A stretch of 20,325 bases of DNA from a virus, in the IMG/VR virus record IMGVR_UViG_3300009593_000164, positions 1 to 20,325 of that record; one strand, written 5' to 3'. Under the pieces are notes generated by a model. It searched no databases. It had not been told where the DNA came from and worked only from the letters and a program-made list of their open reading frames with translations. How positions within the stretch are numbered: the stretch's first letter is position 1; the number at the start of each line of letters is the position of its first letter. The position numbers were made by a program, and so were the translations under genes. This document shows, piece by piece, positions 2,715-19,142 of the stretch.

Positions 2715-4567
2715 TGGAAGCAGGAGCACTATTTAATCCAGGATTTCTAGGAGGATCTTTCCTATGGTGGGTTGGTCAGGTTGCTGATCAATCAGTATGG
2801 AAGGAGAATGTAAAGGATAATAAACACAAAGGATCTGGTGAAATCCCTGGTTGGGGATACAGATATAAGGTGAGAATTATTGGTATTCATGATCAGGGTG
2901 AAGCAACAATACCCTCTGATCAACTGCCTTGGGCACAGGTAATGTATCCTGTTACTGCTGGTGGCGGGCAGGGTGCTTCTTACCAAACTCCAGGTATCAA
3001 ACAAGGTAACTTTGTGTTTGGATTCTTTCTTGATGGACAGGACCAACAAGTTCCTGTCATCATGGGAGTTCTTGGTGCTAATGCACAGATTCCAAAGTCA
3101 ACTCAGACAGGAACAACAGGAGGTCAGAACTTCACTTCACAAAGTGGACGTGCAGACACAGTTTCTGATAATGATCTGGTGACCGAGAGACCATCTGGAA
3201 CAACCACGGCAGGTCAACCTACGGGAGGAGATGATCCTAATAATCCACCAACACCAGATGTTGCACCAACCAAAGAGAGTCCTACTGATCCACATCAGGA
3301 GACAGTAGCAGATAAAACAAAAGATACCGTACTAAAGAAAAAGCGCCCTATATGGTGTACGGATCCGAAACAAACCTCTCCAATGAAAGGTATTCAAACC
3401 ATCATTGCAGATATACAGGAGCAAATTCAATTAAAGCAAGAAAGTCTTCAAGGGTATGTAAATGCGGTTCAGAAACCTATTAATATAGTTAATGGTTTAA
3501 TCAACCAGATCAATGATATTGATGCTCTCATTAGGAGTGCATCATGTGAGATTGCAAAGTTTTTAAGAGCTTTGATTGGTTTAGTTCAGGACTTTGTTAC
3601 TGACTTATTCACCAGAGTATTACAACCGATCTTTAAAATTGCTCCACCAACAATCAAAATTGAAATCCTTGATAAACTAGTCAAGGGACTGGAACTAATT
3701 GAATGTCTCTTTAATAAGATTGGACTTTCGTTATGCGACTCTGCTGAGAAATCTATTAGAGGTTCTTTTGCAAGAAGATCAGCAGGTCGTCCAGCACCAG
3801 CATCAGTTCAACCATTCTTGACTGATCAGTATAAAGACATTCCTTGGTTTGCTGATGTTGGAGATGGTAGATATAATCCAACACCAATGTGTTATGTTGA
3901 GGAATTAGTTGGTGAAATTATCGGGGAGAATATAAATGATATTATCAATGTGTTTGATGCTGCTACTTTACCTATCGTCAGACAGATTGAATCTAGTTTG
4001 GATGATGTTGGATCTTTAGGAGCATCAGCATCTGGTTCGTCAGGCACTAGACCTAGAGATCCTTTACTTCCAAACATTCCAAACCTTCCTGCCATCCCAA
4101 GTTTTGGTGGTCTTGGTGCTCTTGGTGGAGCAGGATTCGATATTGGATCTGCACTTGGTTTCATTAGTGCAATTGCTGGTATCTTTGCTTGTGATCTGTC
4201 ACTGATCTGCTCTCCAAATGAATATCACACTTTACAAGAGGGTGGAAACGCAACACCATCAGAGGATGAACCAAGTAATGTTGAAGTTGCACGAGTAGCA
4301 CAGAAGACTGCAGAAAATCCTCCAAGTGCAACTAATGATGGTCTAGATAATTTAAGTACAGAACAATTGAGAGGTAGATTAGATCCAACTGTCACTGGTG
4401 CTTCTAATCCAGCAGTATTCCAAGCTGCATCACAGGCAAGACAATCTGCAAGAGCAGAGGGTGTTAGTTCGGAAGAAGTTGAAAGAAGAGTTTTAGTAGC
4501 AACAGTTAGAGCATCTAAAGGATCACAACCTGTTACCACACCATCTCCTAAGTACGATACGCCATGA
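2714..4567 (+). CDS. 5: gp5-like baseplate hub/spike protein (OB-fold, no lysozyme domain seen)
   Basis: Encodes 617 residues. Residues ~44-125 have the gp5/VgrG OB-fold pattern: GWGYRYKVRIIGIHD, LPWAQVMYPVTAG, then GNFVFGFFLDGQDQQVPVIMG. This is the domain that docks the spike trimer on the hub ring. It is followed by a Thr/Pro/Gln/Asp-rich linker (~130-215), a long helical region (~225-350) with several Cys, and a Gly/Ser/Pro-rich stretch (~440-490). T4 gp5 carries a lysozyme after the OB fold; I see no such domain here, and no long C-terminal beta-helix of octad repeats. The start ATG 2714 overlaps the upstream TGA by one base, with TGAGGA just upstream, which suggests translational coupling. 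The hydrolase in the first gene and the beta-helical protein at 5829 may supply the missing parts. Confidence 0.75.
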   Translation: MEAGALFNPGFLGGSFLWWVGQVADQSVWKENVKDNKHKGSGEIPGWGYRYKVRIIGIHDQGEATIPSDQLPWAQVMYPVTAGGGQGASYQTPGIKQGNFVFGFFLDGQDQQVPVIMGVLGANAQIPKSTQTGTTGGQNFTSQSGRADTVSDNDLVTERPSGTTTAGQPTGGDDPNNPPTPDVAPTKESPTDPHQETVADKTKDTVLKKKRPIWCTDPKQTSPMKGIQTIIADIQEQIQLKQESLQGYVNAVQKPINIVNGLINQINDIDALIRSASCEIAKFLRALIGLVQDFVTDLFTRVLQPIFKIAPPTIKIEILDKLVKGLELIECLFNKIGLSLCDSAEKSIRGSFARRSAGRPAPASVQPFLTDQYKDIPWFADVGDGRYNPTPMCYVEELVGEIIGENINDIINVFDAATLPIVRQIESSLDDVGSLGASASGSSGTRPRDPLLPNIPNLPAIPSFGGLGALGGAGFDIGSALGFISAIAGIFACDLSLICSPNEYHTLQEGGNATPSEDEPSNVEVARVAQKTAENPPSATNDGLDNLSTEQLRGRLDPTVTGASNPAVFQAASQARQSARAEGVSSEEVERRVLVATVRASKGSQPVTTPSPKYDTP

Positions 4568-5802
4568 ATATAATACCTCCATCTATAGACCTAGTAAAAG
4601 TAGGATATATTAGTAAGACTGATGGATATATTCCTGGTCTCACAATAGATGAAGCAAACGAGCACGAGAAGTCATATCCAGGCACAACATATATCTTTGT
4701 TGACGCTGATGCAAATATTAGATATCTAACAATAGAGCAAGTCAAACAATTGACAACTGCCAGTTTAGAAAGAACCCCTATTTGTAATACTGGTCCAAGA
4801 CCATGTGGTCCACCGAGTATTGTATTTTTTGGGGGTGGAGGTGTTGGTGCTGAAGCAAATCCAGTTGTAGATAGAAATGGAAATTTACTTGCAATTGATA
4901 TAATTTCTCCTGGATATGGATACAGAACTCCGCCAACCATTCGAGTCATAGATCCCTGTGACAATGGTAGCGGTGCTGTTTTAAGCTCAAGAATAAAAAA
5001 TGGTCGAGTTACAGACGTAATTGTTATTGATAGTGGTAGAGGTTATTTACCACCAGGACAGACAGTTCCTCAATATCCTGCTAGGATTTGCCTTAAAGAA
5101 ATACTTGTAATAAATCCAGGTTTGAACTATAATTGTGGAGTAGATGAATTAGTTGTAACACCTAGTAATGGTGCAAAATTATCATATAGTTGTGATTCTT
5201 TTGGAAGAATAAGATCTGTCACTATTGTAAGTGGTGGATGTTATTCAGAGATGCCGACTATTACAATGAAAAGTAATACAGGTGTCAATGCATCATTTGT
5301 TCCTCTCTTTAGTGTTACTCCAGATCCAAGTGTACCGGAGGAAATACCAGCAACAGGTGTCGTTAGGGTTTATGATTTAGTTGGACTTACTCTTCAGGGA
5401 TATGTTGATGGTACAGAGTATTATGGAAACACTTTCATTGAGGGTGGAGTAGCGTATGCTGGAACTAGAAACACTGGTGTGATAGTTTATGAAACGAGAG
5501 CACAAAGTATTGGTGCAGCACCAGTTGAACTACGAACACTACCAGGAACTGATATCACCAATACTTTTGCTAATCCGGAAAGTCTTGGAACCTTACAACA
5601 AAGTGAAACCTCTTCATATGAAACAGAATCAGAAACACGACAAACCTATGTTGCACCACAACCATTAAGTCAAGATACTGTACCGATAGAAACTCCTCAA
5701 GTGGTAGAGAATCCAACAACCTATGATCAGGTAGAAAATGCCCGTCGACAACGTGTTGGTTGGAGAAGAAGGTGGGTATTACCAAGTGACCCAAATTACT
5801 AA
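4564..5802 (+). CDS. Virion structural protein with GxGY repeats
   Basis: Encodes 412 residues and starts in an ATGA overlap with the gp5-like gene, so it is probably translationally coupled to it. Residues ~107-240 carry about four degenerate repeats of the form I-x-PGYGY-x-PP-x-I, then a Gly/Ala turn, NGRVTDVIVIDSGRGY, and so on. These GxGY beta repeats are common in phage appendage and tail proteins, and a similar module occurs in the 1958-residue fibre at ~13020-13320. The repeat region is unusually rich in Cys for a virion protein (several CG/CN pairs). The last ~90 residues are Gln/Thr/Pro-rich and probably disordered, ending in a basic RRQRVGWRRR segment. Position beside the hub suggests a baseplate or tail-tip part; the exact role is unknown. 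Confidence 0.6.
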   Translation: MNIIPPSIDLVKVGYISKTDGYIPGLTIDEANEHEKSYPGTTYIFVDADANIRYLTIEQVKQLTTASLERTPICNTGPRPCGPPSIVFFGGGGVGAEANPVVDRNGNLLAIDIISPGYGYRTPPTIRVIDPCDNGSGAVLSSRIKNGRVTDVIVIDSGRGYLPPGQTVPQYPARICLKEILVINPGLNYNCGVDELVVTPSNGAKLSYSCDSFGRIRSVTIVSGGCYSEMPTITMKSNTGVNASFVPLFSVTPDPSVPEEIPATGVVRVYDLVGLTLQGYVDGTEYYGNTFIEGGVAYAGTRNTGVIVYETRAQSIGAAPVELRTLPGTDITNTFANPESLGTLQQSETSSYETESETRQTYVAPQPLSQDTVPIETPQVVENPTTYDQVENARRQRVGWRRRWVLPSDPNY

Positions 5803-6383: not shown

Positions 6384-7178
6384 ATGGCATTTCAATTTGA
6401 CGAAGAACACATTTATGACGGACACCATCTCGTTTGTCCGGAGGGTAAAATTCCTATTGCACTTGGAGTTGCCGCAACAAAAATTAAACATAGTGCGTAT
6501 GTTTCAGGTCTGGCATTGTATGGTGCTGACAAGAAGTTCCCGACTCCTTATGCTACGGTGATGATTACACCACCTGCACATAGTGGATTGCCATGTGTGG
6601 TTCCTGGAGCAACAGCCTATGGTCCTCCTAGTAATCCATTTTCATTGGCAGTTACTGGTTCTTCTGCCTTTCTTGGTAACATTGAGACTACCAAAGATGT
6701 AATTGTTGGAAGACATTTGGGTGCTCAGGGCGATGTGATTTCTAATTGCGGAGCTCATGTTCTTTCTGCAAAGAAGAACTTTGATATCCCACACCCAACA
6801 AAAGAGGGATGGAGACTTCGCCATACATGTCCTGAAGGACCCTCAAATGATGTCTACTTTAGAGGTAGGATTACAAATAAAAACAAGATCTATTTACCCA
6901 AGTATTGGGAGGAACTTGTTGATCCAACTACAATTACAGTCAATTTAACACCGATTGGTGCTCATCAAAATGTGATTGTAAAAAGAATTGGTGAAAATGT
7001 AGTTCACCTCCAAGCAAATGGTGGATTACCTATCAATTGCTTCTTTCATGTATTTGCAACTCGTGCAGATGGTGAGAGACTTATTCCAGAATATGAGGGA
7101 GAATCGCCTGCAGACTATCCGGGAAATAATGAAGAGTATTCTATTTCTGGATACCACTATGACATTAAGGAGAATTAA
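6384..7178 (+). CDS. Virion structural protein, paralogue A
   Basis: Encodes 264 residues. AAGGAG at 6373-6378, five bases before ATG 6384, fixes the start and overlaps the upstream stop. The C-terminal half (residues ~130-250) is a conserved block seen in marine phage structural proteins: KKNFDIPHPTKEGWRLRHTC, EGPxNDVYFRGR, LPKYWEELVDPTTITVNLTP and a final YEGESPADYPGNN. The same block recurs in the next gene. The N-terminal half differs and starts with a His-rich segment. No enzyme motif is seen. The neighbourhood suggests a tail, baseplate or short-fibre component; I do not know its T4 equivalent, if any. Confidence 0.6.
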   Translation: MAFQFDEEHIYDGHHLVCPEGKIPIALGVAATKIKHSAYVSGLALYGADKKFPTPYATVMITPPAHSGLPCVVPGATAYGPPSNPFSLAVTGSSAFLGNIETTKDVIVGRHLGAQGDVISNCGAHVLSAKKNFDIPHPTKEGWRLRHTCPEGPSNDVYFRGRITNKNKIYLPKYWEELVDPTTITVNLTPIGAHQNVIVKRIGENVVHLQANGGLPINCFFHVFATRADGERLIPEYEGESPADYPGNNEEYSISGYHYDIKEN

Positions 7179-7180
7179 TT

Positions 7181-7972
7181 ATGGCAGAACAAAATCTAGC
7201 ATTTGTACCAGAGTTTGATAGTAATGATTGTAGTGATAAAGGAATTACTGGACCATTTTCAACAAAATTTGACTACATTTTAAAGTCAACAACGGGTGGA
7301 AAAACTTATCCAACAACAGCTTCTGCAGGAAGTATGACATTTGATGTTTGTCGTCCATATATCCATTACAATGTTAATGTAGGAAATCTTAAAATAGAAC
7401 AAAACATTACTCATGTTGTCAACATCAACTCATCTGGGAACATAACTCTAGCAGGGACAGGAAATTTTGGCGGTAATGTGACCGCACCACTTTTTATTGG
7501 CAATCTTCAAGGAGTTGCTAGCGGAAATAAAGTATCATTTGATATCAAACACCCTAAAGAAAAGGGAAAAAGAATTCGTCACATTGTTGCTGAAGGTCCA
7601 GAACCAGGTATTTACATTAGAGGGAGACTGAAAGATAGTAATATAATCCCGCTACCAGATTACTGGGATGGACTGGTTGATAAGGAATCAATCACAGTAA
7701 CTCTAACTCAGATTGGATATTCCCAGGACCTCATTGTTGAGGAAAATATTGAATGGGGTAAAACAATCTATGTCAAATCAGGCAATGGTGCAAACATCAA
7801 TTGTTACTATGAAGTATGGGCTGCTCGCTGGTTAGATAGAGACAACCATGATGATAAATTACATGTGGTTTATGAAGGAGAGTCTTATGATGACTATCCA
7901 GGAAATAATGATGTGTTTTGGAAGTTGAATGAAACTCAACCACAATTTAGTGTTAGTGGAGGATTTCAATGA
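7181..7972 (+). CDS. Virion structural protein, paralogue B
   Basis: Encodes 263 residues, starting two bases after the stop of paralogue A with AAGGAGAA at 7167-7174 as ribosome-binding site. Residues ~117-245 match the upstream protein block by block: VSFDIKHPKEKGKRIRHIV, EGPEPGIYIRGR, LPDYWDGLVDKESITVTLTQ and YEGESYDDYPGNN. The N-terminal ~115 residues are unrelated to paralogue A, with a short beta region (NITHVVNINSSGNITLAG) typical of fibre shafts. The pair probably arose by duplication of the C-terminal domain with exchange of the N-terminal part. Structural role likely, exact role unknown. Confidence 0.6.
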   Translation: MAEQNLAFVPEFDSNDCSDKGITGPFSTKFDYILKSTTGGKTYPTTASAGSMTFDVCRPYIHYNVNVGNLKIEQNITHVVNINSSGNITLAGTGNFGGNVTAPLFIGNLQGVASGNKVSFDIKHPKEKGKRIRHIVAEGPEPGIYIRGRLKDSNIIPLPDYWDGLVDKESITVTLTQIGYSQDLIVEENIEWGKTIYVKSGNGANINCYYEVWAARWLDRDNHDDKLHVVYEGESYDDYPGNNDVFWKLNETQPQFSVSGGFQ

Positions 7973-9043: not shown

Positions 9044-9116
9044 GCTCCCTTAGCAATCTGGTGAATGCACCGAACTCATAATTCGGCTAAGGTGAGTTCG
9101 ATCCTCACAGGGAGCA
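9044..9116 (+). tRNA. tRNA with CAU anticodon (Ile2 or Met)
   Basis: A 73-base cloverleaf. Acceptor stem GCTCCCT/AGGGAGC with discriminator A and no encoded CCA; short D arm; anticodon stem CCGAA/TTCGG with loop CTCATAA (anticodon CAT at 9077-9079); T arm GTGAG-TTCGATC-CTCAC. CAU can mean elongator Met or Ile2 (modified to lysidine to read AUA). The pairs C4-G69 and C5-G68 agree with what I recall as the TilS recognition pattern for Ile2, in contrast to U4-A69/A5-U68 of E. coli elongator Met. Ile2 is therefore favoured but not settled. Confidence 0.85.
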
Positions 9117-9122
9117 CCTCAC

Positions 9123-9207
9123 GCGAGTGTGGCGGAATCGGTAGACGCACCAGACTTAAAATCTGTTGAGAATTAATCTCGTGGGGGTTCAAGTCCCCCC
9201 ACTCGCA
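9123..9207 (+). tRNA. trnL(uaa): tRNA-Leu (anticodon UAA)
   Basis: An 85-base cloverleaf with acceptor GCGAGTG/CACTCGC, discriminator A, anticodon stem CAGA/TCTG with loop CTTAAAA (anticodon TAA at 9157-9159), a long class II variable arm (TTGAGAATTAATCTC region) and T arm GGGGG-TTCAAGT-CCCCC. It reads UUA and UUG. It starts six bases after the CAU tRNA, so the two are probably co-transcribed. Confidence 0.93.
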
Positions 9208-9216
9208 CTAAATAAT
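9208..9216 (+). promoter_or_regulatory. CTAAATA-type late-promoter candidate
   Basis: CTAAATAAT begins on the base right after the tRNA-Leu discriminator and lies 16 bases before ATG 9233. The identical nonamer occurs before the 1958-residue fibre gene (9791), which supports a promoter role for the CTAAATA variant of the late motif. Confidence 0.4.
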
Positions 9217-9232
9217 CGAAAAATAGAATATT

Positions 9233-9502
9233 ATGAATTATCACATAACCACTGCATATTGTTGGTATAGTCGAAAAAAGACCATTGTGCTTATGTATTT
9301 CATAAATGAAATTCCGTTTACTTTTGATGAACTACCTCACCACGCGCTTTTCATCCCAGATGTTGTAGATGCAGCAAATGAAGAAAGATCTTTTGAACCA
9401 GAAGATCTATATAAAGCATCTAGTTACTTAATTGCAGAAGAATGCCATCCAATGCTTTTTGAGTTAGAATTAGAAAACCCAGAATTATTACCTGTGGATT
9501 GA
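9233..9502 (+). CDS. Hypothetical small acidic protein
   Basis: Encodes 89 residues, acidic after the first ~20. Not recognised. The segment FTFDELPHHALFIPDVVDAA, then FEPEDLYKASSYLIAEECHP, looks mostly helical. There is no clear ribosome-binding site at ATG 9233; an in-frame ATG at 9293 would give a 69-residue protein starting MYFINEIPFTFDEL, also without a clear site. The gene sits between tRNA-Leu and tRNA-Thr, and its TGA ends one base before the tRNA-Thr 5' end, so processing of the tRNA must cut immediately behind the reading frame. Confidence 0.55.
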   Translation: MNYHITTAYCWYSRKKTIVLMYFINEIPFTFDELPHHALFIPDVVDAANEERSFEPEDLYKASSYLIAEECHPMLFELELENPELLPVD

Positions 9503-9503
9503 T

Positions 9504-9577
9504 GCCAAATTAGCTCAGTTGGATAGAGCAACTGTTTTGTAAACAGTAGGTCAACAGTTCAAGTCTGTTATTTGGCT
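9504..9577 (+). tRNA. trnT(ugu): tRNA-Thr (anticodon UGU)
   Basis: A 74-base cloverleaf with acceptor GCCAAAT/ATTTGGC, discriminator T, D arm GCTC-AGTTGGATA-GAGC, anticodon stem ACTGT/ACAGT with loop TTTGTAA (anticodon TGT at 9538-9540), and a T arm with loop TTCAAGT closed by AACAG/CTGTT. No CCA is encoded. It reads ACA, a favoured threonine codon in the AT-rich genes around it. Confidence 0.93.
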
Positions 9578-9828: not shown

Positions 9829-12800
9829 ATGGGTCTTTCTAGATTAGAAAATTTTCTTAAGAATGCGCGTGGCAATATCCTGTATGTAAGTCCTAATGAC
9901 CTGGATTCTACAGATAGTGTTGAAAATAGGGGTAATTCGCTTACCAGACCTTTTAAAACTATTCAACGTGCGTTGATTGAAGCGTCAAGATTTTCGTATC
10001 AGCGCGGTCTGAATAACGACAGATTCGGACAAACAACTATATTATTATATCCTGGCGATCATGTTATTGATAATAGACCCGGATACATTCCAGATGGAGT
10101 GAATAATTATAGGTTGCGTGATGGATCAGTAACCGATGATTTGCCACCTTGGGATCTTGAGTCAGTTTATGATTTAAATAACCCAGATAATGTTCTCTTT
10201 AAAATGAATAGTGTTCACGGGGGTGTAATTGTTCCTCGTGGTACTTCTATTGTTGGTCTTGACTTAAGAAAGACAAAGATTAGACCAAAATATGTTCCTA
10301 ATCCATCAAACGATAATATTGAAAGATCTGCACTGTTTAGAATAACCGGTGCTTGTTATTTCTGGCAGTTTACGATTTTTGATGCCGATCCAAATGGCAC
10401 TTGTTATAAAGATTACACAGATAATACCTTTGTTCCCAATTTCTCTCATCATAAGTTAACTTGTTTTGAGTATGCTGATGGTCTTAATAATGTAAGTATT
10501 AAGGACGAGTTCCAAACTTACAGCACCAATAGAACTGACCTTGACATGTATTATGAAAAGGTTGGATTAGTATATGGAACTGCTAGTGGTAGAGAAATTG
10601 AACCTGATTATCCTTCAAGTGCCCTTGACATTCAACCAAAAATTGATGAATACCGTATTGTTGGTTCTACTGGAGAAACAGTTGGAATTACAAGTATTAA
10701 ATCGGGAGATGGTGATACCTCAACCACTGATATCACTGTAACCACTGAATCGGCTGTAGCTGGTCTTGATGTTGATACTCCATTTAGAGTTGAAGGAATT
10801 ACCGCAGACGGATATGATGGTCAGTTTGTTGTTAGTGAAAGAATAAGTTCAACAGAATTTAAATATGAAGTTCAAAATGCTCCTGCAAATGCGTTACCAG
10901 CGATAACGGGATCAACAGTTACTCTTCAATCTGATACTGTTACATCTGCATCTCCATATATCTTTAACACATCATTGAGATCTGTTTTTGGTATGTGTGG
11001 TATGCACGCAGATGGAACCAAGGCGACTGGATTCAAGTCGATGGTTGTTGCTCAATTCACTGGTATCAGTCTTCAGAAGGACGACAGTGCGTTTGTAAAA
11101 TATAATTCAACAACAGGGGTATATCAAGACAGCACTGTTTCTGGTAATGAAACATTGAGTACAGATTCTAGGTCAAAATATAAACCATCATTTGCTAACT
11201 TCCATATTAAGTGTTCAAATAATGGTGTTATCCAGGCTGTTTCTATCTTCGCAATTGGATATGCAGAACACTTTGTGGTGGAAAGTGGTGCTGACATGTC
11301 CATCACCAACTCTAATAGTAACTTTGGTGCAAATGCTCTTGTGTCTAGAGGATTTAGACCAGAGGCATTCACCCAAGATGACCAGGGATATGTAACTCAT
11401 ATCATTCCACCAAAAGAAGTTCCAATCACTGAAAGTGCGATTGAATTCAATGCGATTGACGTAGCAAAAACCGTTGGTGTAGCATCAACCGCACATTTAT
11501 ACCTTTATCAACAGACAAACCAAGATGCTCCACCAGAGAACGTATTAGAAGGTTTTAGAGTTGGTGCAAGATCTTCTGATAACCTTCATGTTCTGGTTCC
11601 TTCAGGTGGAACTTCTGTAGAATTCAAATCACGTATTGTGATGCCAAACTCTGAATCAAGTTCAGAGAAGAAGTTTTTAGTATCGCAAAGTTCAGCAGGT
11701 ATTAATAGTATCAGTAGTAATACCATTACACTAACAGAACCACATACTTTTGAAACTACAGAATCCGTTAGAGTTTTTAGTGACAGTGGAAGACTACCTG
11801 ACGGATTATCTCCAAACACAGTATATTATGTAATTACAGATTCAAATGCTGCTTCTGGTATTACGACAAATGTTGATATTCAACTTGCTAAAACAGAAAC
11901 TGATGCAAAGAACTCTAGCGCAATACCAATTAATGATCTTGGTGGCACTTTATCAATTGTAAGTAGGGTATCTGATAAAAATTCAGGTGATATTGGTCAC
12001 CCAATTCAATTTGATACTAATCAAGGTCAATGGTTCGTTAAAGTTGCATCAGCAAGCACAGAGAACCAAATTTATCAAAATGTTATTGTTGGTCTTGGTG
12101 TAGGTGTTCTAGGTAATTCAACACCTAGAACTTATATTAAGAGAAAGTCGGACACCAGAAACGCAGTTGATACAACGTATAGATTGAGATACGTTATTCC
12201 TTCTTCAATTGGTGGAAAGGTTTCTAGAGCTCCTCAAGATGCATTTATTTTACAAGAATCTGGCGACACTCTTGGTGCAACCCAAGAAGAAATCCAAACG
12301 TATTTTGGAACAGGTTCTATTTCTCATGTTAACCAATTAAGAAACTCTAAATTTGTCGCAGACGCAAAGTGGTTCAATGATAATACTGCCACCATTATTG
12401 CAGAACTTCCACATGATCTAACTGTTGGATCAATGGTTGAAATTACCAATATTAAGAGTGCTACTAACACTCTTGGTGTTGGAAACTCTGGTTTTAATGG
12501 TATCTTCAATGTTGTTGGTATTAGTAGTGCATTAGCATTTACAGTTGGAATTAACACTAATCCTGGAGAATTCCAAAATGACACGTTAACAAGAAATACT
12601 AATTTACCATACTTTAAGAGAAAGCAATATAGTACTGATTTTATTGTTCAAGGAGCACAAGAAATTCAACCACTTATTGGTGGTCAGCAAGATGGCATTT
12701 ACTACTTTACTGTAATTAATGGTTCTAATAACCCACCAATTTCTCCGTTTACTGATAGGAGTTTTGCACAACCTGTTTTAAATCTCTATCCTCAAAGAGA

Positions 12801-15705
12801 CAAAGATACTCCACTTTCTGATCCGTTGCCAACAACCTCACTTGCTGAAAGTGAGATAATCGGTTCTGTTATTATTGATGATGTTAAAAAAAGTATAACA
12901 AGAGAAACGATTGATAAGTTTGTCAAAGACACTGATGTTGGTGTTGGTATTACTGATATTGTAACATCAATTGGAAGGACAGACCATACAATTCATACTG
13001 AAATTGATCATGGATTTAACCGCATTATTAGGGTTAGTATTGCAAGTAGTGGAAATGACTATGGCACAGGCGCAAATGCAACGTATTTTAATGCAAAATT
13101 AGTATCTATTGGTAGTTCTGTAACTGGTAAACATGCTACAGCAAAAGTTGATGTTGCTGATAGTGGTGGAATTACTGCAGTTCAAATTATGGATGGTGGT
13201 AGTGCATATGGTGTTGGTAACACAATGCACGTTGTTGGTATTGCAACTACAGGAAACTCTCATGTTCCTGCAGTCGTCACTGTCACATCAATCTATGATA
13301 ATAGAGGCGATATTGTTAGAATTAGTGGTGTAACCTCAGCAACAAATGAACCATACAATACTGTTTATAGGTTAACTGGACTAGAAGTTGGTGCAGCTAA
13401 GAGTTTTGTTATAAATTCAGATTCATTATCTGGTGTTCAAACTGCAGGAATTGGATCTGCTCCATTAACCAATGCAACAGCATATCTAACAGGCGAAGAG
13501 CTGAAGATTAGCACATTTACATTTGATAGTACTTCTGGTATTGCAACAGTAACGACATCTACTAATCATGGATTAAAGGTCAATAATAAGATTAAGATTT
13601 CTACGGGCATTTCTACTTTTGCCGTCTTTAATGATGATTTTGTTATTACAGAAAACATTAGTCTTACCAAGTTTAGTATTTTAGTTGGATCTGGTGCAAC
13701 AAATTCGACTGGTGTGACAGGTTCTTCCATGTTTGCACTGCGTGGTGGTATTCAATCTAATGATGGTATCCCAACCGTTGAAAATGAAAGTTTGAATGGA
13801 AGAATGGTTCCACAATATGCAGGAATTACTACAACTCTTGCATCTGGTATTGCAAATGCTGTTACTGATAGTGTTTCTTTGACGGGAGTTGCAAATCTTG
13901 GATTGAAAATTGGCGATTATCTTGCAATTGATGATGAAGTTGTTAGAATTAAAACTGCTCCTGCAAACCCAGCATCTAACCCAATTCGGGTTTTCCGTGC
14001 GGTTCTTGGAACCAGAGCAGTTCCGCATGACAATAGCGCAATTGTTCGTAGAATTAAACCATTCCCAGTTGAATTAAGAAGACACTCTATCAACAGAGCG
14101 TCTGGTCATACATTTGAATATGTTGGATTTGGTCCTGGTAACTATTCCACTGCTCTACCTGATAGACAGGATCGTAGCAGAACTGCTACTGAAGAACTAT
14201 TAGCACAAACCATCAAAGAATCTGGTGGTGTGAACTTCTTCACTGGTATGAATGACAAGGGTATTTCATATTCTGGTAACAAGAAGTTGAGTAGTGTTAC
14301 TGGTCAAGAAGAAATCTTTGATAGTCCAATCAGAACTGTAACTGGTGAGGACATTTCTGCACAGAAATCAATTAACCTGGTTAATGCAACTGATGCTGTC
14401 ATTACCAACTCTCTTCGTGTTGATGGTGGAGCAGAAGGTAAATCTACATCAGAATTCACTGGTCCGGTAATCTTTACCAACAAGGTTTCATCTACTTCTG
14501 CAAGAGGTATTGAAGCAACATCTATATTCATTCAAGGTGACTCTACTGTTTCTCGTAAGCAAACTGTTGGTATTGCAACTCCAATTACTGCAGGAACCCC
14601 TGGTGATATCGTATACTTTGAAAACCCAGATCAAGGAAAATATGTTGGTTGGGTTTATACCACAGCAAATGAGTGGAGAAGATTTGGTAATGTAAGTCTT
14701 TCTAAAGAACAAGACATTTACTTGTTTGATCAAGTTGGCATTGCAACTACAGCAGTTTCAAATGCTACTTTCCAAGTTGGTTCTGGTTCAAGTATATTTG
14801 CTATTGATGGTGATGGTGTTGGTATCGGAACAACAGCAAATGGTAAGAAACTGCGTGTAGTTGGCGATGCTGAAGTCACCGGAAACGTTAATGTTGGTGT
14901 CATAACTGCTTCACAATTCCATGGCGATGGAAATAACTTGACAAACCTGAACGCATCAGCGACTGGTTGGGAGCAAGTGGCATCTGGTCTTGGAACTGGT
15001 ATTTACAATAGTTCTTTAACCAATGTTGGAGTTGGTACTACCGTACCTAGATTTAACTTACATTTGGGACATCCTGGTCTTGGTAGAACTGCACTCTTTG
15101 TTGAGGGTAATTCTATATTCCATGCGGGAATTGCTGCATCTGATATCACGGTTGGAGTTATTACTGCTAATAACTTCAGATTGAACAACAGCAGCACTGG
15201 TCATATCAATGCTGGTATCGTTACTACCGGAACACTGGTTGTTGGAACTTCAGGCACTGTCATTACGACGACCTCAGATCAAAAGATTGGTTTTGGTACT
15301 GTATCTCCTAGAGCACAAGTTGATATTGAAGGAAGACTTCGCCTGAAGAGTTATCATGAGGCAGTTCAATCAGTTTCTAGTTCTTCTGGTAACGCTGTAA
15401 TTGACATATCACTCGCCCAAAACTTTACAATTACTACAACCGAGAATATCACACAATTTACTCTCACTAATACTCCTGATGAAGTAACTACCTTTACGAT
15501 TAAAATCGTTCAGGGAAGTACGGGTCGTAATGTCGGTATAGATACATTTAAGAACTCTGGCGGTACTGCTATTCCAGTATATTGGCCAGGTGGAGTTCTC
15601 CCTGTAGTCACTGTTGGTGCAGGTAAATCGGACATCTATTCATTTAAATCATTTGATGGATGTAGCACACTTTATGGAGTCGTTGGAGGTCAGAACTTCG
15701 GATGA
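9829..15705 (+). CDS. Giant tail-fibre/appendage protein (1958 residues)
   Basis: The N-terminus, MGLSRLENFLKNARGNILYV, is followed by TRPFKTIQRALIEA (residues ~39-52), the entry motif of pectate-lyase-like right-handed beta-helices. VPRGTSIVGLDLRKTKI and ITGACYFWQFTIFD continue that pattern to ~residue 250. The middle contains Ig-like or beta-sandwich units marked by 'HGL...G..I.I' and 'F.V....S...F' (for example 11690-11960, 12360-12600, 13510-13740) and a GxGY-type module (13020-13320). The last ~400 residues are fibre shaft with repeated GIGT/GVGTT and VGVITA elements. The final ~40 residues (YWPGGVLPVV... YSFKSFDGCSTLYGVVGGQNF) form a tip domain that recurs in phage fibres. Probably a trimeric adhesion or baseplate-attached fibre. 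No enzyme residues are identified. A late-promoter candidate precedes it, and its stop overlaps the next start. Confidence 0.7.
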   Translation: MGLSRLENFLKNARGNILYVSPNDLDSTDSVENRGNSLTRPFKTIQRALIEASRFSYQRGLNNDRFGQTTILLYPGDHVIDNRPGYIPDGVNNYRLRDGSVTDDLPPWDLESVYDLNNPDNVLFKMNSVHGGVIVPRGTSIVGLDLRKTKIRPKYVPNPSNDNIERSALFRITGACYFWQFTIFDADPNGTCYKDYTDNTFVPNFSHHKLTCFEYADGLNNVSIKDEFQTYSTNRTDLDMYYEKVGLVYGTASGREIEPDYPSSALDIQPKIDEYRIVGSTGETVGITSIKSGDGDTSTTDITVTTESAVAGLDVDTPFRVEGITADGYDGQFVVSERISSTEFKYEVQNAPANALPAITGSTVTLQSDTVTSASPYIFNTSLRSVFGMCGMHADGTKATGFKSMVVAQFTGISLQKDDSAFVKYNSTTGVYQDSTVSGNETLSTDSRSKYKPSFANFHIKCSNNGVIQAVSIFAIGYAEHFVVESGADMSITNSNSNFGANALVSRGFRPEAFTQDDQGYVTHIIPPKEVPITESAIEFNAIDVAKTVGVASTAHLYLYQQTNQDAPPENVLEGFRVGARSSDNLHVLVPSGGTSVEFKSRIVMPNSESSSEKKFLVSQSSAGINSISSNTITLTEPHTFETTESVRVFSDSGRLPDGLSPNTVYYVITDSNAASGITTNVDIQLAKTETDAKNSSAIPINDLGGTLSIVSRVSDKNSGDIGHPIQFDTNQGQWFVKVASASTENQIYQNVIVGLGVGVLGNSTPRTYIKRKSDTRNAVDTTYRLRYVIPSSIGGKVSRAPQDAFILQESGDTLGATQEEIQTYFGTGSISHVNQLRNSKFVADAKWFNDNTATIIAELPHDLTVGSMVEITNIKSATNTLGVGNSGFNGIFNVVGISSALAFTVGINTNPGEFQNDTLTRNTNLPYFKRKQYSTDFIVQGAQEIQPLIGGQQDGIYYFTVINGSNNPPISPFTDRSFAQPVLNLYPQRDKDTPLSDPLPTTSLAESEIIGSVIIDDVKKSITRETIDKFVKDTDVGVGITDIVTSIGRTDHTIHTEIDHGFNRIIRVSIASSGNDYGTGANATYFNAKLVSIGSSVTGKHATAKVDVADSGGITAVQIMDGGSAYGVGNTMHVVGIATTGNSHVPAVVTVTSIYDNRGDIVRISGVTSATNEPYNTVYRLTGLEVGAAKSFVINSDSLSGVQTAGIGSAPLTNATAYLTGEELKISTFTFDSTSGIATVTTSTNHGLKVNNKIKISTGISTFAVFNDDFVITENISLTKFSILVGSGATNSTGVTGSSMFALRGGIQSNDGIPTVENESLNGRMVPQYAGITTTLASGIANAVTDSVSLTGVANLGLKIGDYLAIDDEVVRIKTAPANPASNPIRVFRAVLGTRAVPHDNSAIVRRIKPFPVELRRHSINRASGHTFEYVGFGPGNYSTALPDRQDRSRTATEELLAQTIKESGGVNFFTGMNDKGISYSGNKKLSSVTGQEEIFDSPIRTVTGEDISAQKSINLVNATDAVITNSLRVDGGAEGKSTSEFTGPVIFTNKVSSTSARGIEATSIFIQGDSTVSRKQTVGIATPITAGTPGDIVYFENPDQGKYVGWVYTTANEWRRFGNVSLSKEQDIYLFDQVGIATTAVSNATFQVGSGSSIFAIDGDGVGIGTTANGKKLRVVGDAEVTGNVNVGVITASQFHGDGNNLTNLNASATGWEQVASGLGTGIYNSSLTNVGVGTTVPRFNLHLGHPGLGRTALFVEGNSIFHAGIAASDITVGVITANNFRLNNSSTGHINAGIVTTGTLVVGTSGTVITTTSDQKIGFGTVSPRAQVDIEGRLRLKSYHEAVQSVSSSSGNAVIDISLAQNFTITTTENITQFTLTNTPDEVTTFTIKIVQGSTGRNVGIDTFKNSGGTAIPVYWPGGVLPVVTVGAGKSDIYSFKSFDGCSTLYGVVGGQNFG

Positions 15706-17552
15706 GTTTAAATCAACAATGGGATGAAACTCCCACCAATCTATTTCTAAACGGACCAACTCTTTCGTTTACTTCAGAACCATCTAGCATTACTTTAGGT
15801 AATGGAGAAAGTGGAACTTTTGTTGGACTTGCTACAGCAACATTTCCTGCCACAGTAAGTAATGCTGAAAGTGATGGTACAATTGTATATCGATGGTATA
15901 GGAAATTATCATCTGAAACCTCTTTTAGTGCTCTTAGTACAGGTTCAACTTTTTATTCTGGAGAAACAACTAATGTTTTAAGTATTGATTTTGCATTAAG
16001 TCCAGACTTTCATAAAAGTGAATATTATCTTCAAGCAACTTATAATCCTGTTGGTTTTGCTGCAACTGAAAAGACTGCAGGTGATGCTTCTAATGAAGCG
16101 ATTATAACAGCATCTGCAACACTCAATACCAATCCAGGACTTGACATTGCAACTGAACCATCAGATCAGACGGCAGTTGTTAATAGTGAAGCAACTTTTA
16201 CTGTTACACCAGAGTTGACTGATGTATCTCAGGGATCTGTAACATATCAATGGAGATTGAATGATCGACCCGTATCTGATGGCAATAATCAAACAACTAC
16301 GACATTAACAACCAGTTCAAATCAGTATAAGAACAATAATACTAGTGCTGGAAAATTGATTATTGATATTCCAGATAATGCCACTGATGTTCAGATAGAT
16401 ATTTCAGGTGGTCGTGGTGGTTCTGGTAGTGGATATGCTAATGGTAGTGGTGGAGGTGGTGGATATGGAAGAAGAGGATCCTTTATTCTCCCTGATGGAG
16501 GGAGAACTTTAGAACTTTACATTGGTACTGGTGGAGGAACACCAACTCGTGGTGGAAGTTCGACAAACTTTGGATTCCTCAAAGGAGGACAAGGTGGATC
16601 AGGAAACTCTTCCGGTGGTGGAGGAGGATCAGGATCTTTCGTTTATGATAGTAATTTAGGTGGATGGATTATTGCCGCTGGAGGTGGCGGAGGAGGGGGA
16701 GGAGGTGCTCTCAACTCCGGAACTTCTAATGGTGGAGGCACTGCTGGAGGTTTTAGTGCGTTAAGTTCTTTTACTGTCTCCGATAGTGCTTCTGGTGGCG
16801 GTGCTGGCTCAAATATTGGTTCTGGTGGAGGTGGAGGAGCAGGAGGATCAGGTTACAGAGGAGGAAACGGTGGTAGTGCTGGTGCTAACATTCCACCTCC
16901 ACCACCACCTCCACCACCGCCACCGCCACCGCCACCACCACCGCCGCCACCACCACCACCTCCGCCGCCACCACCACCTCCACCACCTCCGCCAGATCGG
17001 AGACGGAGACGGAGAAGTAGGAGAAGAGGTAAGATCATTTGCCAACATCTTGCAACACTTGGATATTTCAAGGATAAAGAGATGAATGATGCAGACCAAC
17101 GGTTTGCAGTATGGCTTAAAAATAATGATCCAGTTGCATATGATGGTTACATTGTTTGGGCTAGAACTGTCGTTGATCTAATGAACGGCGAAGGTCCAGA
17201 ATCTTTCAGAAAAATTACTTTCTTCTGGGAGAGAGATGATGAGAAGAGGATTTATCTTCAACAACAATTGGTATGCTATTATATGGATGCTCTTGCTAAA
17301 CCTTGGGCAAAAGAAATGGCACACCGCATGGATGCCAAAGGATATGAAAAATCAAATCCTGCCGGTAACTTAATGATGAAGATTGGATTGCCTTTATGCC
17401 GTTTGGTTGGAAAGGCAAAGAGTGATAATAAGATGAATCAAACTCTTAAAGTGTTCTTGATTTGGAAGATCGTAACTGTGCTGCTATTATCCGTTGGAAC
17501 AATTTCAACTATTGATTTCTTGTTAAATAAGATTAAAGGATTATTTAAATGA
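15702..17552 (+). CDS. Mosaic fibre: Ig-like, Gly-rich, polyproline, Arg tract, C-terminal membrane domain
   Basis: Encodes 616 residues; ATG 15702 is in an ATGA overlap with the giant fibre gene. In order: two Ig-like beta domains (~15-135 and ~145-200, with VYRWYRK and TYQWRLN strand motifs); a beta/Gly-rich domain (~205-397) like the polyglycine tips of phage adhesins; 34 consecutive prolines (398-431); D then RRRRRRSRRRG (432-443); and a domain from KIICQHLATLGYF to the end (444-616). That last domain looks helical, rich in Trp and charged residues, and ends in a hydrophobic helix (~584-606, VFLIWKIVTVLLLSVGTIST) with a basic tail. The first part fits a tail fibre. The last part has no known function to me; I believe comparable domains occur at the ends of other marine phage fibres. 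A single open frame, no sign of frameshift. Confidence 0.65.
   Translation: MSLNQQWDETPTNLFLNGPTLSFTSEPSSITLGNGESGTFVGLATATFPATVSNAESDGTIVYRWYRKLSSETSFSALSTGSTFYSGETTNVLSIDFALSPDFHKSEYYLQATYNPVGFAATEKTAGDASNEAIITASATLNTNPGLDIATEPSDQTAVVNSEATFTVTPELTDVSQGSVTYQWRLNDRPVSDGNNQTTTTLTTSSNQYKNNNTSAGKLIIDIPDNATDVQIDISGGRGGSGSGYANGSGGGGGYGRRGSFILPDGGRTLELYIGTGGGTPTRGGSSTNFGFLKGGQGGSGNSSGGGGGSGSFVYDSNLGGWIIAAGGGGGGGGGALNSGTSNGGGTAGGFSALSSFTVSDSASGGGAGSNIGSGGGGGAGGSGYRGGNGGSAGANIPPPPPPPPPPPPPPPPPPPPPPPPPPPPPPPPPPDRRRRRRSRRRGKIICQHLATLGYFKDKEMNDADQRFAVWLKNNDPVAYDGYIVWARTVVDLMNGEGPESFRKITFFWERDDEKRIYLQQQLVCYYMDALAKPWAKEMAHRMDAKGYEKSNPAGNLMMKIGLPLCRLVGKAKSDNKMNQTLKVFLIWKIVTVLLLSVGTISTIDFLLNKIKGLFK
16893..17015 (+). 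repeat. Polyproline (CCN)34 tract followed by (CGGAGA)3 Arg tract
   Basis: Bases 16893-16994 are 34 consecutive proline codons (21 CCA, 8 CCG, 5 CCT, no CCC). After one Asp codon, CGGAGA is repeated three times (16998-17015), giving six arginines, with four more basic residues following. It is low-complexity DNA prone to slippage, and the CCN run is roughly complementary to the GGN-rich stretch upstream. Confidence 0.95.
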
Positions 17553-17908
17553 CGGTTGAACATGATGAAAAAATGAATGATTTAATCAGTAACTTTGACA
17601 ATTGTGTTTTTTACAATGCAATTGTCAAAGATGATTATCCATATGATGAGTGGGAAGTAGATTTTCTTGCAGATTTTGCGATAAATGGATTAGAATCTCA
17701 AGTTCAAGAATATTATTATAGATCTGAAAGAATTATAAGTAAGATGAGAGAATTGGGTGTTGATACTGAAGAAACTTGGATTGAAATCGATAAAACTATC
17801 GTAGATCCTATTATAGAACTTATTGATGATGACAATGATGGAACCAATGTATATCAGAAAACCATTGAGATGTTAGCAACCCTAGAAACAAGATACGAGG
17901 TAACCTAA
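17549..17908 (+). CDS. Hypothetical acidic protein
   Basis: Encodes 119 residues, strongly acidic, mostly predicted helical (for example INGLESQVQEYYYRSERIISKMREL is one long helix-like run). ATG 17549 overlaps the stop of the mosaic fibre gene (ATGA), which suggests coupling. I recognise no family. Lying between two Gly-rich fibre genes and coupled to the first, it could be a fibre chaperone or assembly factor, like the small helper proteins often found next to phage fibre genes; that is only inference from position and size. Confidence 0.5.
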   Translation: MTVEHDEKMNDLISNFDNCVFYNAIVKDDYPYDEWEVDFLADFAINGLESQVQEYYYRSERIISKMRELGVDTEETWIEIDKTIVDPIIELIDDDNDGTNVYQKTIEMLATLETRYEVT

Positions 17909-17909
17909 A

Positions 17910-19142
17910 ATGGGAAGAGCGGCAGGGGGAAATGGAGCTACTAGTAGATATAGACTAACAACTACTGGGGGAGCTATAACAATAGCATCACAGGATGCTG
18001 CAGGAGTTACTCCCTATATTCAGGTTACTTATAAAGTTCCTGGTAGTGGTGGTACAACAGTGACTGAAACTACAACTTTATCTGGAACAAATACAGATAC
18101 TTTAACTATAAAATGTGACTCTGTAAAAACACAAGAATTAGATTGCGTGATAGACGGTTCCTCCATTCCTACAGTCCCTACCTCTGTTACGTCAGACACT
18201 GCAAAATTCTTTAGTATTAGTCAAAGTAACCTAGAGCAATCATTTGTTAATTTGGCTATTATTGATGACGAAACTGGTTCATATTCTGCAAGCAGTACAA
18301 ACCTTTATATTAATGACCTAACACTGACCCCATCATCAACAACATCATTAAGGAGTTTTATTTTATATGCAACGCAAAATATTCCAGTAAGGATTACTCT
18401 TGAGGGTGGAGGTGGTTCTCCATACGGATCATCACATTCTGGCGGTGCTGGAGGGAGAACAGTCTTTGATTACACATTACTTGCAAACACCGAGTATGTT
18501 TTTAAACTTGGAGTACATTCTGGCAATGTTCGAGGTGGTCTTGCAGGATACTTTTATGAAAAAGGATCACTACTAGTTGTATCTGGTGGTGGAGGAAATG
18601 CTGGTTCTGGTGGTAATGGTGGTAATGGCGGAGGTGCGGGAATTCAAGGAAAACCTGGTGTAGGTAATGGTGCTGGTATTGGTGGATCTGGATTAATAAA
18701 CGGAACATTACCAGGATCTGGTTTCTTGGCAGCAGGAGCAATAGGTGGTAGAGTAGAATCTTGCACCACAGGATATTATTGGGCGATTCAAGGAAAATCT
18801 CCTTGCGAAGATCTAGGAAAGGTTAACTTTAGAACTGCTAGTGGAACATCAGTAACTAATTCCACTAGTGATATAACCAGAGGATTTAAGGCAGATCTTT
18901 CATATAGTTTGGGTGGAAACCATGGATTCCGACTTAATGGCGGAAATAGTCAATTTGGTAATGGTGGTGGTGGTTGTGGCGCTATAGGAGGAAATGCAAC
19001 TTCTAATGGAGTTGGTGGAGGCGGTGGTGGATCAGGATATACTAATGGTGCTGTGACGGTTGTTGATACTGGTCTTGCACCACAACCTAGTGTGGGAGGA
19101 GCAGCATTTCCTGCAAGAGCAATTATAGAATTACGGACGTAG
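17910..19142 (+). CDS. Gly-rich fibre-tip/adhesin protein (gp38-like)
   Basis: Encodes 410 residues; GAGG at 17897-17900 precedes ATG 17910. The N-terminal ~140 residues are Thr/Ser-rich beta sequence (TTTGGAITIASQ and so on). From ~residue 165 the chain alternates short strands with long glycine runs: LEGGGGSPYGSSHSGGAGG, SGGGGNAGSGGNGGNGGGAG, GNGGGGCGAIGGNATSNGVG. This resembles the glycine-rich motifs of T-even gp38 adhesins, which fold as polyglycine-II bundles with variable loops that contact receptors. The Gly-rich domain of the upstream 616-residue protein is of the same kind. Two Cys pairs occur (CTTGYYWAIQGKSPC and around 18975). Likely receptor-binding; homology to gp38 itself is not claimed. 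Confidence 0.55.
   Translation: MGRAAGGNGATSRYRLTTTGGAITIASQDAAGVTPYIQVTYKVPGSGGTTVTETTTLSGTNTDTLTIKCDSVKTQELDCVIDGSSIPTVPTSVTSDTAKFFSISQSNLEQSFVNLAIIDDETGSYSASSTNLYINDLTLTPSSTTSLRSFILYATQNIPVRITLEGGGGSPYGSSHSGGAGGRTVFDYTLLANTEYVFKLGVHSGNVRGGLAGYFYEKGSLLVVSGGGGNAGSGGNGGNGGGAGIQGKPGVGNGAGIGGSGLINGTLPGSGFLAAGAIGGRVESCTTGYYWAIQGKSPCEDLGKVNFRTASGTSVTNSTSDITRGFKADLSYSLGGNHGFRLNGGNSQFGNGGGGCGAIGGNATSNGVGGGGGGSGYTNGAVTVVDTGLAPQPSVGGAAFPARAIIELRT

What the first reader, a model, noticed from the sequence alone, without database searches (positions are those of the whole stretch)
15702..17552. Fibre fused to polyproline, Arg-rich junction and a membrane-spanning C-terminal domain
A host-recognition-type N-terminal part is joined through 34 prolines (a rigid rod of roughly 10 nm if polyproline II) and RRRRRRSRRR to an uncharacterised ~170-residue domain (KIICQHLATLGYF, NDPVAYDGYIVWARTVVDLM) that ends in a hydrophobic helix. 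A virion fibre with a transmembrane end is unexpected. It could insert in the host envelope during entry, act as a pore or holin-like part, or carry the fibre to a membrane site. This is the strongest candidate for an undescribed system in the window.
Basis: partly seen in the sequence, partly recalled or inferred. Interest (0 to 1): 0.78.

Follow-up and report, generated by a model that had tools for sequence, protein, structure and literature searches.

The report
Phage adhesin with membrane-anchored C-terminal domain
A marine cyanophage protein that looks like a fibre-tip adhesin carries, on a 34-proline arm, an undescribed helical domain with a membrane-anchor end, and relatives of that domain sit on DNA-ejection and other virion-type proteins of quite different phages, so it may be a shared module for engaging the host envelope.

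Summary
ORF 15702-17552 (616 aa) has 34 prolines, RRRRRRSRRR, and a 173-residue C-terminal domain (CTD) ending in a hydrophobic helix. The same architecture occurs in Synechococcus phage SynMITS9220M01 and in metagenomic cyanophages. The CTD has no gathering-level match in Pfam, PHROGs or NCBIfam and no PDB fold. It heads a large viral family of about 75 contigs, always at a C-terminus and nearly always after a Pro-, Gly- or Asn-Cys-rich linker. The hydrophobic tail is conserved (55 of 58 distinct sequences), and a small adjoining ORF usually follows. Remote, tail-less relatives end podovirus DNA-ejection proteins and other head-region proteins. Relative to Bellamy gp28 and S-SM2_031, the polyPro-CTD-partner cassette splits one Gly-rich adhesin gene in two; a separate lineage shows a similar split. 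The Pro-tract codons are scrambled between 99%-identical phages, yet its length is exactly kept. Best explanation (about 0.4): an accessory adhesin domain that docks into the host envelope at entry. The main rival is an assembly or chaperone module.

The parts
9829..15705 (+). Upstream 1958-aa tail fibre protein; its stop overlaps the start of the finding (ATGA)
   Evidence: PHROG 529 tail fibre E=0; same order in SynMITS9220M01, Bellamy, S-SM2, P-TIM68
15702..17552 (+). 616-aa protein of the finding
   Evidence: homologue SynMITS9220M01_028 QJT70041.1
15702..16316 (+). N-terminal part with Ig-like repeats (about residues 1-205)
   Evidence: PHROG 24848 E=1e-42 over residues 7-391; profile hit to a phage tail protein (9c2d, E=3.5e-4) and to Ig light chains in the PDB
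16317..16892 (+). Gly-rich adhesin-like part (about residues 206-397)
   Evidence: sequence; PHROG 2155/29022 virion structural proteins; Gly_rich_2 PF21722 in N-parts of homologues
16893..16994 (+). 34-proline tract (residues 398-431), about 10 nm if polyproline II
16998..17027 (+). Arg-rich junction RRRRRRSRRR (residues 433-442)
   Evidence: 7-8 Arg in close relatives, absent in L010
17031..17420 (+). Core of the CTD (IIC...GYxxWA...PWAxEMA...C), all-helical
   Evidence: alignments A2, A5; AF2 pLDDT 86
17469..17525 (+). Predicted membrane helix (residues 590-608) in the C-terminal helix 580-614
17549..17908 (+). Partner ORF, 119 aa, type A; start overlaps the CTD stop (ATGA)
17910..19142 (+). 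Second half of the ancestral adhesin gene (410 aa)
   Evidence: PHROG 24848 positions 392-783, E=3.9e-38; aligned to the C-terminal half of Bellamy gp28 and S-SM2_031

Best explanation
ORF 15702 is a host-contact protein of a T4-like cyanophage. Its N-terminal Ig-like and Gly-rich part is the first half of a fibre-tip adhesin whose second half is now ORF 17910. At the Gly-rich break it carries an accessory module on a stiff arm of 33-34 prolines: a compact helical domain ending in a tail-anchor helix. I propose that in the virion the anchor helix is kept shielded, perhaps by the small partner protein. Once the adhesin has found its receptor, the arm lets the domain reach the cell surface and seat in or on the host envelope, firming up adsorption at the entry site. 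Shown: architecture, conservation, modular family, membrane-helix conservation, partner linkage, gene split, and homology of the core to C-termini of DNA-ejection proteins. Inferred: presence in the virion, location at the fibre tip, membrane insertion, shielding by the partner, and timing at entry.
For: The gene follows and overlaps a fibre gene, and the N-part matches PHROG 24848 and Ig/Gly-rich virion proteins. The CTD always sits at the C-terminus, usually after a flexible or stiff linker, on other tail or adhesin-like N-parts: Gly_rich_2, PA14, DUF4815. The tail helix is conserved in 55 of 58 distinct sequences. The core is homologous to the C-terminus of podovirus DNA-ejection proteins: hhalign E=2.5e-9 to HMO-2011/HTVC033P/MW202481 and 1.8e-16 with bridging sequences, against 0.2 and 0.64 for unrelated control profiles. 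tblastn links are L111 to HMO-2011 8e-7, L111 to SynMITS9220M01 3e-4, HMO-2011 to HTVC033P 3e-6, HTVC033P to MW202481 1e-9. The MW202481 carrier matches 'DNA ejection protein' PHROG 4287 (2.6e-7) and lies near 'released from the phage upon host infection' PHROG 2534 (2e-11). Ejection proteins form the trans-envelope conduit (PMC8402733, PMC8954989). The Pro tract keeps its length while its codons are scrambled, so a fixed-length arm appears selected.
Against: No proteomics, adsorption or membrane data were found for any member. The podovirus and HMO-2011-type members lack the membrane helix, and ejection proteins sit inside the capsid, so a shared function need not be envelope insertion. A tail-anchored protein made in the cytoplasm could insert into the host inner membrane before assembly. 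The N-part adhesin fold could not be modelled (pLDDT 37). Most cyanophages lack the CTD, so it is dispensable in general.
Confidence: 0.4

Rival explanations
1. Assembly module: the CTD and the downstream small protein form a dedicated folding or assembly pair, with the CTD acting as a C-terminal chaperone or membrane-localised assembly site for the split adhesin; it may be removed before or during virion assembly.
For: A small partner ORF follows in most CTD loci, overlapping or abutting the stop, in two unrelated families. Phage fibres commonly have a downstream chaperone gene, and such chaperones can be required for host recognition (PMC7289586, PMC9608196). The CTD sits between two halves of one adhesin gene.
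Against: No match to known fibre chaperones or self-cleaving domains. Partner types swap on the CTD tree (9 changes) and some CTDs have no partner (L018, L020-L023, L039, L042-L044). The same core also ends DNA-ejection proteins. A stiff 33-34-Pro arm is odd for an assembly domain.
Confidence: 0.27
2. Intracellular membrane protein: the fusion is a non-virion membrane-tethered protein, acting for example in superinfection exclusion or lysis timing.
For: A C-terminal tail anchor is what one expects of a cytoplasmic protein tethered to a membrane.
Against: The carrier proteins are fibre, adhesin, DUF4815 and ejection types, and no lysis gene was recognised next to it in the window. The only holin in the fold search is a chance-level match (E=4.4).
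Confidence: 0.13
3. Invading cassette: CTD plus partner is a recombination cassette that spreads between Gly/Pro-repeat-coding regions and has little to do with adhesin function.
For: The cassette splits Gly-rich genes in two lineages at different loops. CTD clade and N-part are uncoupled: L036 has the IICQKL-type CTD in the same split adhesin as ICTKL-type L084/L105/L106. Usually one copy per virus.
Against: No integrase, endonuclease or reverse transcriptase is encoded in the cassette. CTD residues and the Pro-tract length are strongly conserved, which implies function for the carrier phage.
Confidence: 0.12

Closest known systems
SynMITS9220M01_028 (QJT70041.1), Synechococcus phage SynMITS9220M01
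   Same: Same 616-aa architecture; CTD 88% identical; same partner and following Gly-rich gene
   Different: 33 Pro, RRRRRRRR and no Asp before the Arg tract; annotated only as hypothetical protein
Bellamy gp28 / S-SM2_031 / PHROG 24848
   Same: Same position behind the fibre gene; Ig-like and Gly-rich halves homologous to ORFs 15702 and 17910
   Different: One uninterrupted gene of 821 or 845 aa without polyPro, CTD or partner
T2/S16/PP01 gp38 fibre-tip adhesin (PMC12892980)
   Same: Gly-rich protein encoded just after the distal fibre gene
   Different: As far as I know gp38 has no Ig-like repeats, polyPro arm, helical CTD or membrane helix; no significant sequence match was found here
Podovirus DNA-ejection proteins with this CTD (MW202481.1, PHROG 4287), HMO-2011 phage1322_49, HTVC033P gp76
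   Same: Homologous C-terminal core behind a linker; a further ORF often starts at the stop
   Different: Unrelated N-parts, head or ejection gene position, no membrane helix
Intact Gly-rich/PA14 adhesins with terminal CTD (L033, L034, L069, L075, L090)
   Same: CTD plus type B partner after a Gly linker
   Different: CTD follows the complete adhesin domain; a PA14-like domain occupies the loop where split versions break

Membership tests
CTD family defined here (alignment A5) | C-terminal position, IIC.KL, D, GYxxWA, PWA.EMA motifs and helical core | tested here: met
   Invariant C4, L7, D22, G39, Y40, W43, A44, P91, W92, A93, M96, A97 over 43 sequences; model pLDDT 86
CTD family defined here (alignment A5) | Conserved C-terminal membrane helix | tested here: met
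   Window KD19 2.12; 55 of 58 distinct members at 1.6 or more
PHROG 24848 (cyanophage Ig/Gly-rich protein) | Profile match over the N-part | tested here: met
   E=1e-42, residues 7-391
gp38-type fibre-tip adhesin | Encoded directly after the distal fibre gene; Gly-rich motifs | tested here: met
   ATGA overlap with the 1958-aa fibre gene; Gly runs
gp38-type fibre-tip adhesin | Poly-glycine II sandwich fold | tested here: inconclusive
   AF2 model of residues 1-394 unusable (pLDDT 37)
gp38-type fibre-tip adhesin | Receptor binding at the fibre tip | not testable with these tools
   needs adsorption or structural experiments
DNA-ejection (E) protein | Ejection-protein N-part and head/ejection gene position | tested here: not met
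   Window N-part matches PHROG 24848 and lies in the fibre module; only the CTD core is shared
Holin | Small protein with 1-3 membrane helices in a lysis setting | tested here: not met
   616 aa, one helix in a fibre module; no Pfam, PHROG or NCBIfam holin match
Pfam DUF6787 (PF20584) | Score above the 27.5-bit gathering cut-off | tested here: not met
   16 bits, E=0.016, over the hydrophobic tail
Diversity-generating retroelement target | Reverse transcriptase in the genome | tested here: not met
   No PF00078 match in SynMITS9220M01 or in three contigs; relevant only to the scrambled Pro codons

The most novel reading that the evidence does not exclude
One undescribed domain superfamily serves phages of different morphologies as an exchangeable host-envelope engagement module: on ejected proteins without an anchor in podoviruses, and on receptor-binding adhesins with a membrane anchor and a fixed-length polyproline arm in T4-like phages. 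The fibre would then insert into the host envelope rather than only bind a receptor.
Probability: 0.3. Interest if true: 0.85.

Novelty: new variant of a known kind. Interest (0 to 1): 0.6.

Why it matters
Receptor-binding fibres are normally thought to touch only the cell surface, while ejected proteins cross the envelope. A shared C-terminal domain on both classes, with a membrane anchor on the fibre side, would link adsorption to envelope entry and give a testable handle on how reversible binding becomes irreversible in abundant marine and freshwater phages. It also adds a modular family without a match in Pfam, PHROGs or NCBIfam, and a rare case of a homopolymer tract kept at fixed length while its codons turn over.

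Tried and rejected
PDB searches with the CTD model found nothing convincing (Foldseek best E 0.67; VIA Z 3.1 or less, typical of helical bundles), nor did sequence profiles. In BFVD only matches with E 0.001 or better, or prob 1.0, were used; the holin at E 4.4 is chance. DUF6787 and PA0613_fam matches are below cut-off. The scan of cellular genomes gave a single weak match on a 4.6-kb Desulfobacteraceae MAG contig (31%), so the family looks essentially viral. The second AF2 job on the N-part failed from a shallow alignment and was not used for fold search. Gly-rich Pfam models did not score on the joined split halves, so the split in L036/L084/L105/L106 rests on the MAFFT alignment to intact homologues. 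A DGR explanation of the scrambled Pro codons was rejected: no reverse transcriptase. Strand slippage was tested as shared codon blocks: none above shuffles. Paper searches found no study of this domain. One diagnostic slip: the CTD identities printed for L003 against the others (0.32) were computed out of register; the 4-kb comparison on the next line (1.0 for L003-L002) and the L002-SynMITS value (0.990) are the valid ones.

Full report
WHAT IS THERE. The window is the baseplate/fibre region of a T4-like cyanophage (Kyanoviridae type; nearest isolate Synechococcus phage SynMITS9220M01). Its start overlaps the stop of the 1958-aa fibre gene (ATGA), and its stop overlaps the start of a 119-aa ORF (17549-17908, ATGA).

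THE ARCHITECTURE IS CONSERVED. SynMITS9220M01_028 is also 616 aa with the same layout, as are IMG/VR contigs L002 and L004; L003 begins inside the tract, and L010 (CTD 59% identical) has 28 Pro and no Arg tract. Among 50,697 phage records SynMITS9220M01 is the only close match to the CTD, so it is an accessory feature rare in cultured phages.

THE PROLINE TRACT. Between SynMITS9220M01 and L002 the flanking fourfold sites are 96-98% identical (274 of 284), but within the tract only 13 of 33, no better than chance, and with no shared codon order (Fisher p=5e-16). The tract length is nevertheless exactly 33 in both, and 33-34 in all four close cyanophage members with a complete tract. L003, from an independent assembly, agrees with L002 over the 14 codons it holds. 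No reverse transcriptase was found. This is unexplained at the DNA level; at the protein level it suggests selection for an arm of fixed length (inference).

A LARGE FAMILY. Profile scans of IMG/VR gave 30 and then 75 loci. In every full-length case the CTD ends its protein, nearly always after a low-complexity linker (polyPro, polyGly or Asn-Cys repeats). N-parts include Gly_rich_2, PA14 and DUF4815 proteins. Invariant positions include C4, D22, GY(39-40), WA(43-44), PWA(91-93) and MA(96-97). Most genomes have one copy (18 of 20 records searched), two have two. The C-terminal hydrophobic segment reaches KD 1.6 in 55 of 58 distinct sequences, the rest of the domain in 2. AlphaFold2 gives a confident helical model (pLDDT 86) without a PDB match.

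REMOTE RELATIVES ON EJECTION PROTEINS. Single-sequence searches link the family to HMO-2011 phage1322_49, HTVC033P gp76 and podovirus MW202481. Profile comparison confirms it: E=2.5e-9 without bridging sequences, 1.8e-16 with them, against 0.2 and 0.64 for two unrelated control profiles. These versions lack the membrane helix. In MW202481 the carrier matches PHROG 4287 'DNA ejection protein' over its N-part and lies two genes upstream of a PHROG 2534 protein 'released from the phage upon host infection'. At least 198 IMG/VR stretches encode this version, and all 80 kept share the same N-part. In L118 the carrier follows a protein matching internal-virion and connector PHROGs. In HMO-2011, HTVC033P and L117 it lies between portal and scaffold or coat genes.

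PARTNER ORF. A small ORF follows directly in most loci. Two families were found: type A (window, 113-148 aa; SR.DNC..YN motif) and type B (57-111 aa); neither has a PHROG match of note or a PDB match. Types A, B and none need 9 changes on the CTD tree, so the partner is exchangeable. Several loci have none.

THE SPLIT ADHESIN. PHROG 24848 (799 positions) is matched in its first half by ORF 15702 and in its second half by ORF 17910. In Bellamy (821 aa) and S-SM2 (845 aa) the two are one gene. The polyPro-CTD-partner cassette therefore sits inside what is one gene elsewhere. A similar break, at another loop of a Gly-rich domain, is seen in L036, L084, L105 and L106, where intact relatives carry a PA14-like insert. 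I infer, but have not shown, that the two halves still form one structure, which would place the CTD next to the adhesin.

MECHANISM. The best-supported reading is an accessory envelope-docking module on a fibre-tip adhesin (0.4). It rests on carrier type, linker design, the conserved anchor helix and homology to the C-terminus of ejection proteins, which build the trans-envelope conduit (PMC8402733, PMC8954989). The main counter-arguments are the missing helix in the ejection versions and the lack of any virion or membrane data. The assembly/chaperone reading (0.27) is favoured by the partner ORF and by the habit of phage fibres to have downstream chaperones (PMC7289586, PMC9608196). An intracellular membrane protein (0.13) and an invading cassette (0.12) remain possible.

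VERDICT. Observation confirmed; interpretation partly supported. The domain family appears undescribed, is widespread and is more interesting as a module than as a single odd fibre. Filed as a new variant of a known kind: phage host-contact proteins with an undescribed C-terminal domain.

Noticed in passing
window 16893-16994; L001; L002: Pro-tract codons are randomised between phages whose flanks are 96-98% identical at fourfold sites, yet tract length is exactly conserved; no DGR reverse transcriptase found.
   Followed up: partly
L128 4001-4312 and L129-L208: A very common freshwater podovirus group carries a remote CTD version on a DNA-ejection protein (at least 198 IMG/VR stretches).
   Followed up: partly
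L036, L084, L105, L106 versus L033, L034, L069, L075, L090: One loop of a Gly-rich adhesin domain is a hot spot: PA14-like insert in some viruses, a gene break with CTD and partner in others.
   Followed up: partly
L024-L030, L066 partner ORFs: Type A partners of these contigs have an N-terminal extension with a C-x2-C...C pattern that looks like a possible metal site, absent in the window's copy.
   Followed up: no
L098 about 3001-4600; contig of L066 (G012): Two CTD-bearing genes within one virus (in tandem in L098); in G012 the second has an in-frame TAA.
   Followed up: no
L072 3508-4848: A type-B-like partner segment is fused to the start of a 446-aa protein instead of standing alone.
   Followed up: no
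window 9044-9577: Three tRNA genes (Met-CAT, Leu-TAA, Thr-TGT) just upstream of the fibre gene.
   Followed up: no
window 6384-7178 and 7181-7972: Two adjacent ORFs share a similar segment (HPTKEGWRLRHTCPEGP / HPKEKGKRIRHIVAEGPE) and look like paralogues.
   Followed up: no
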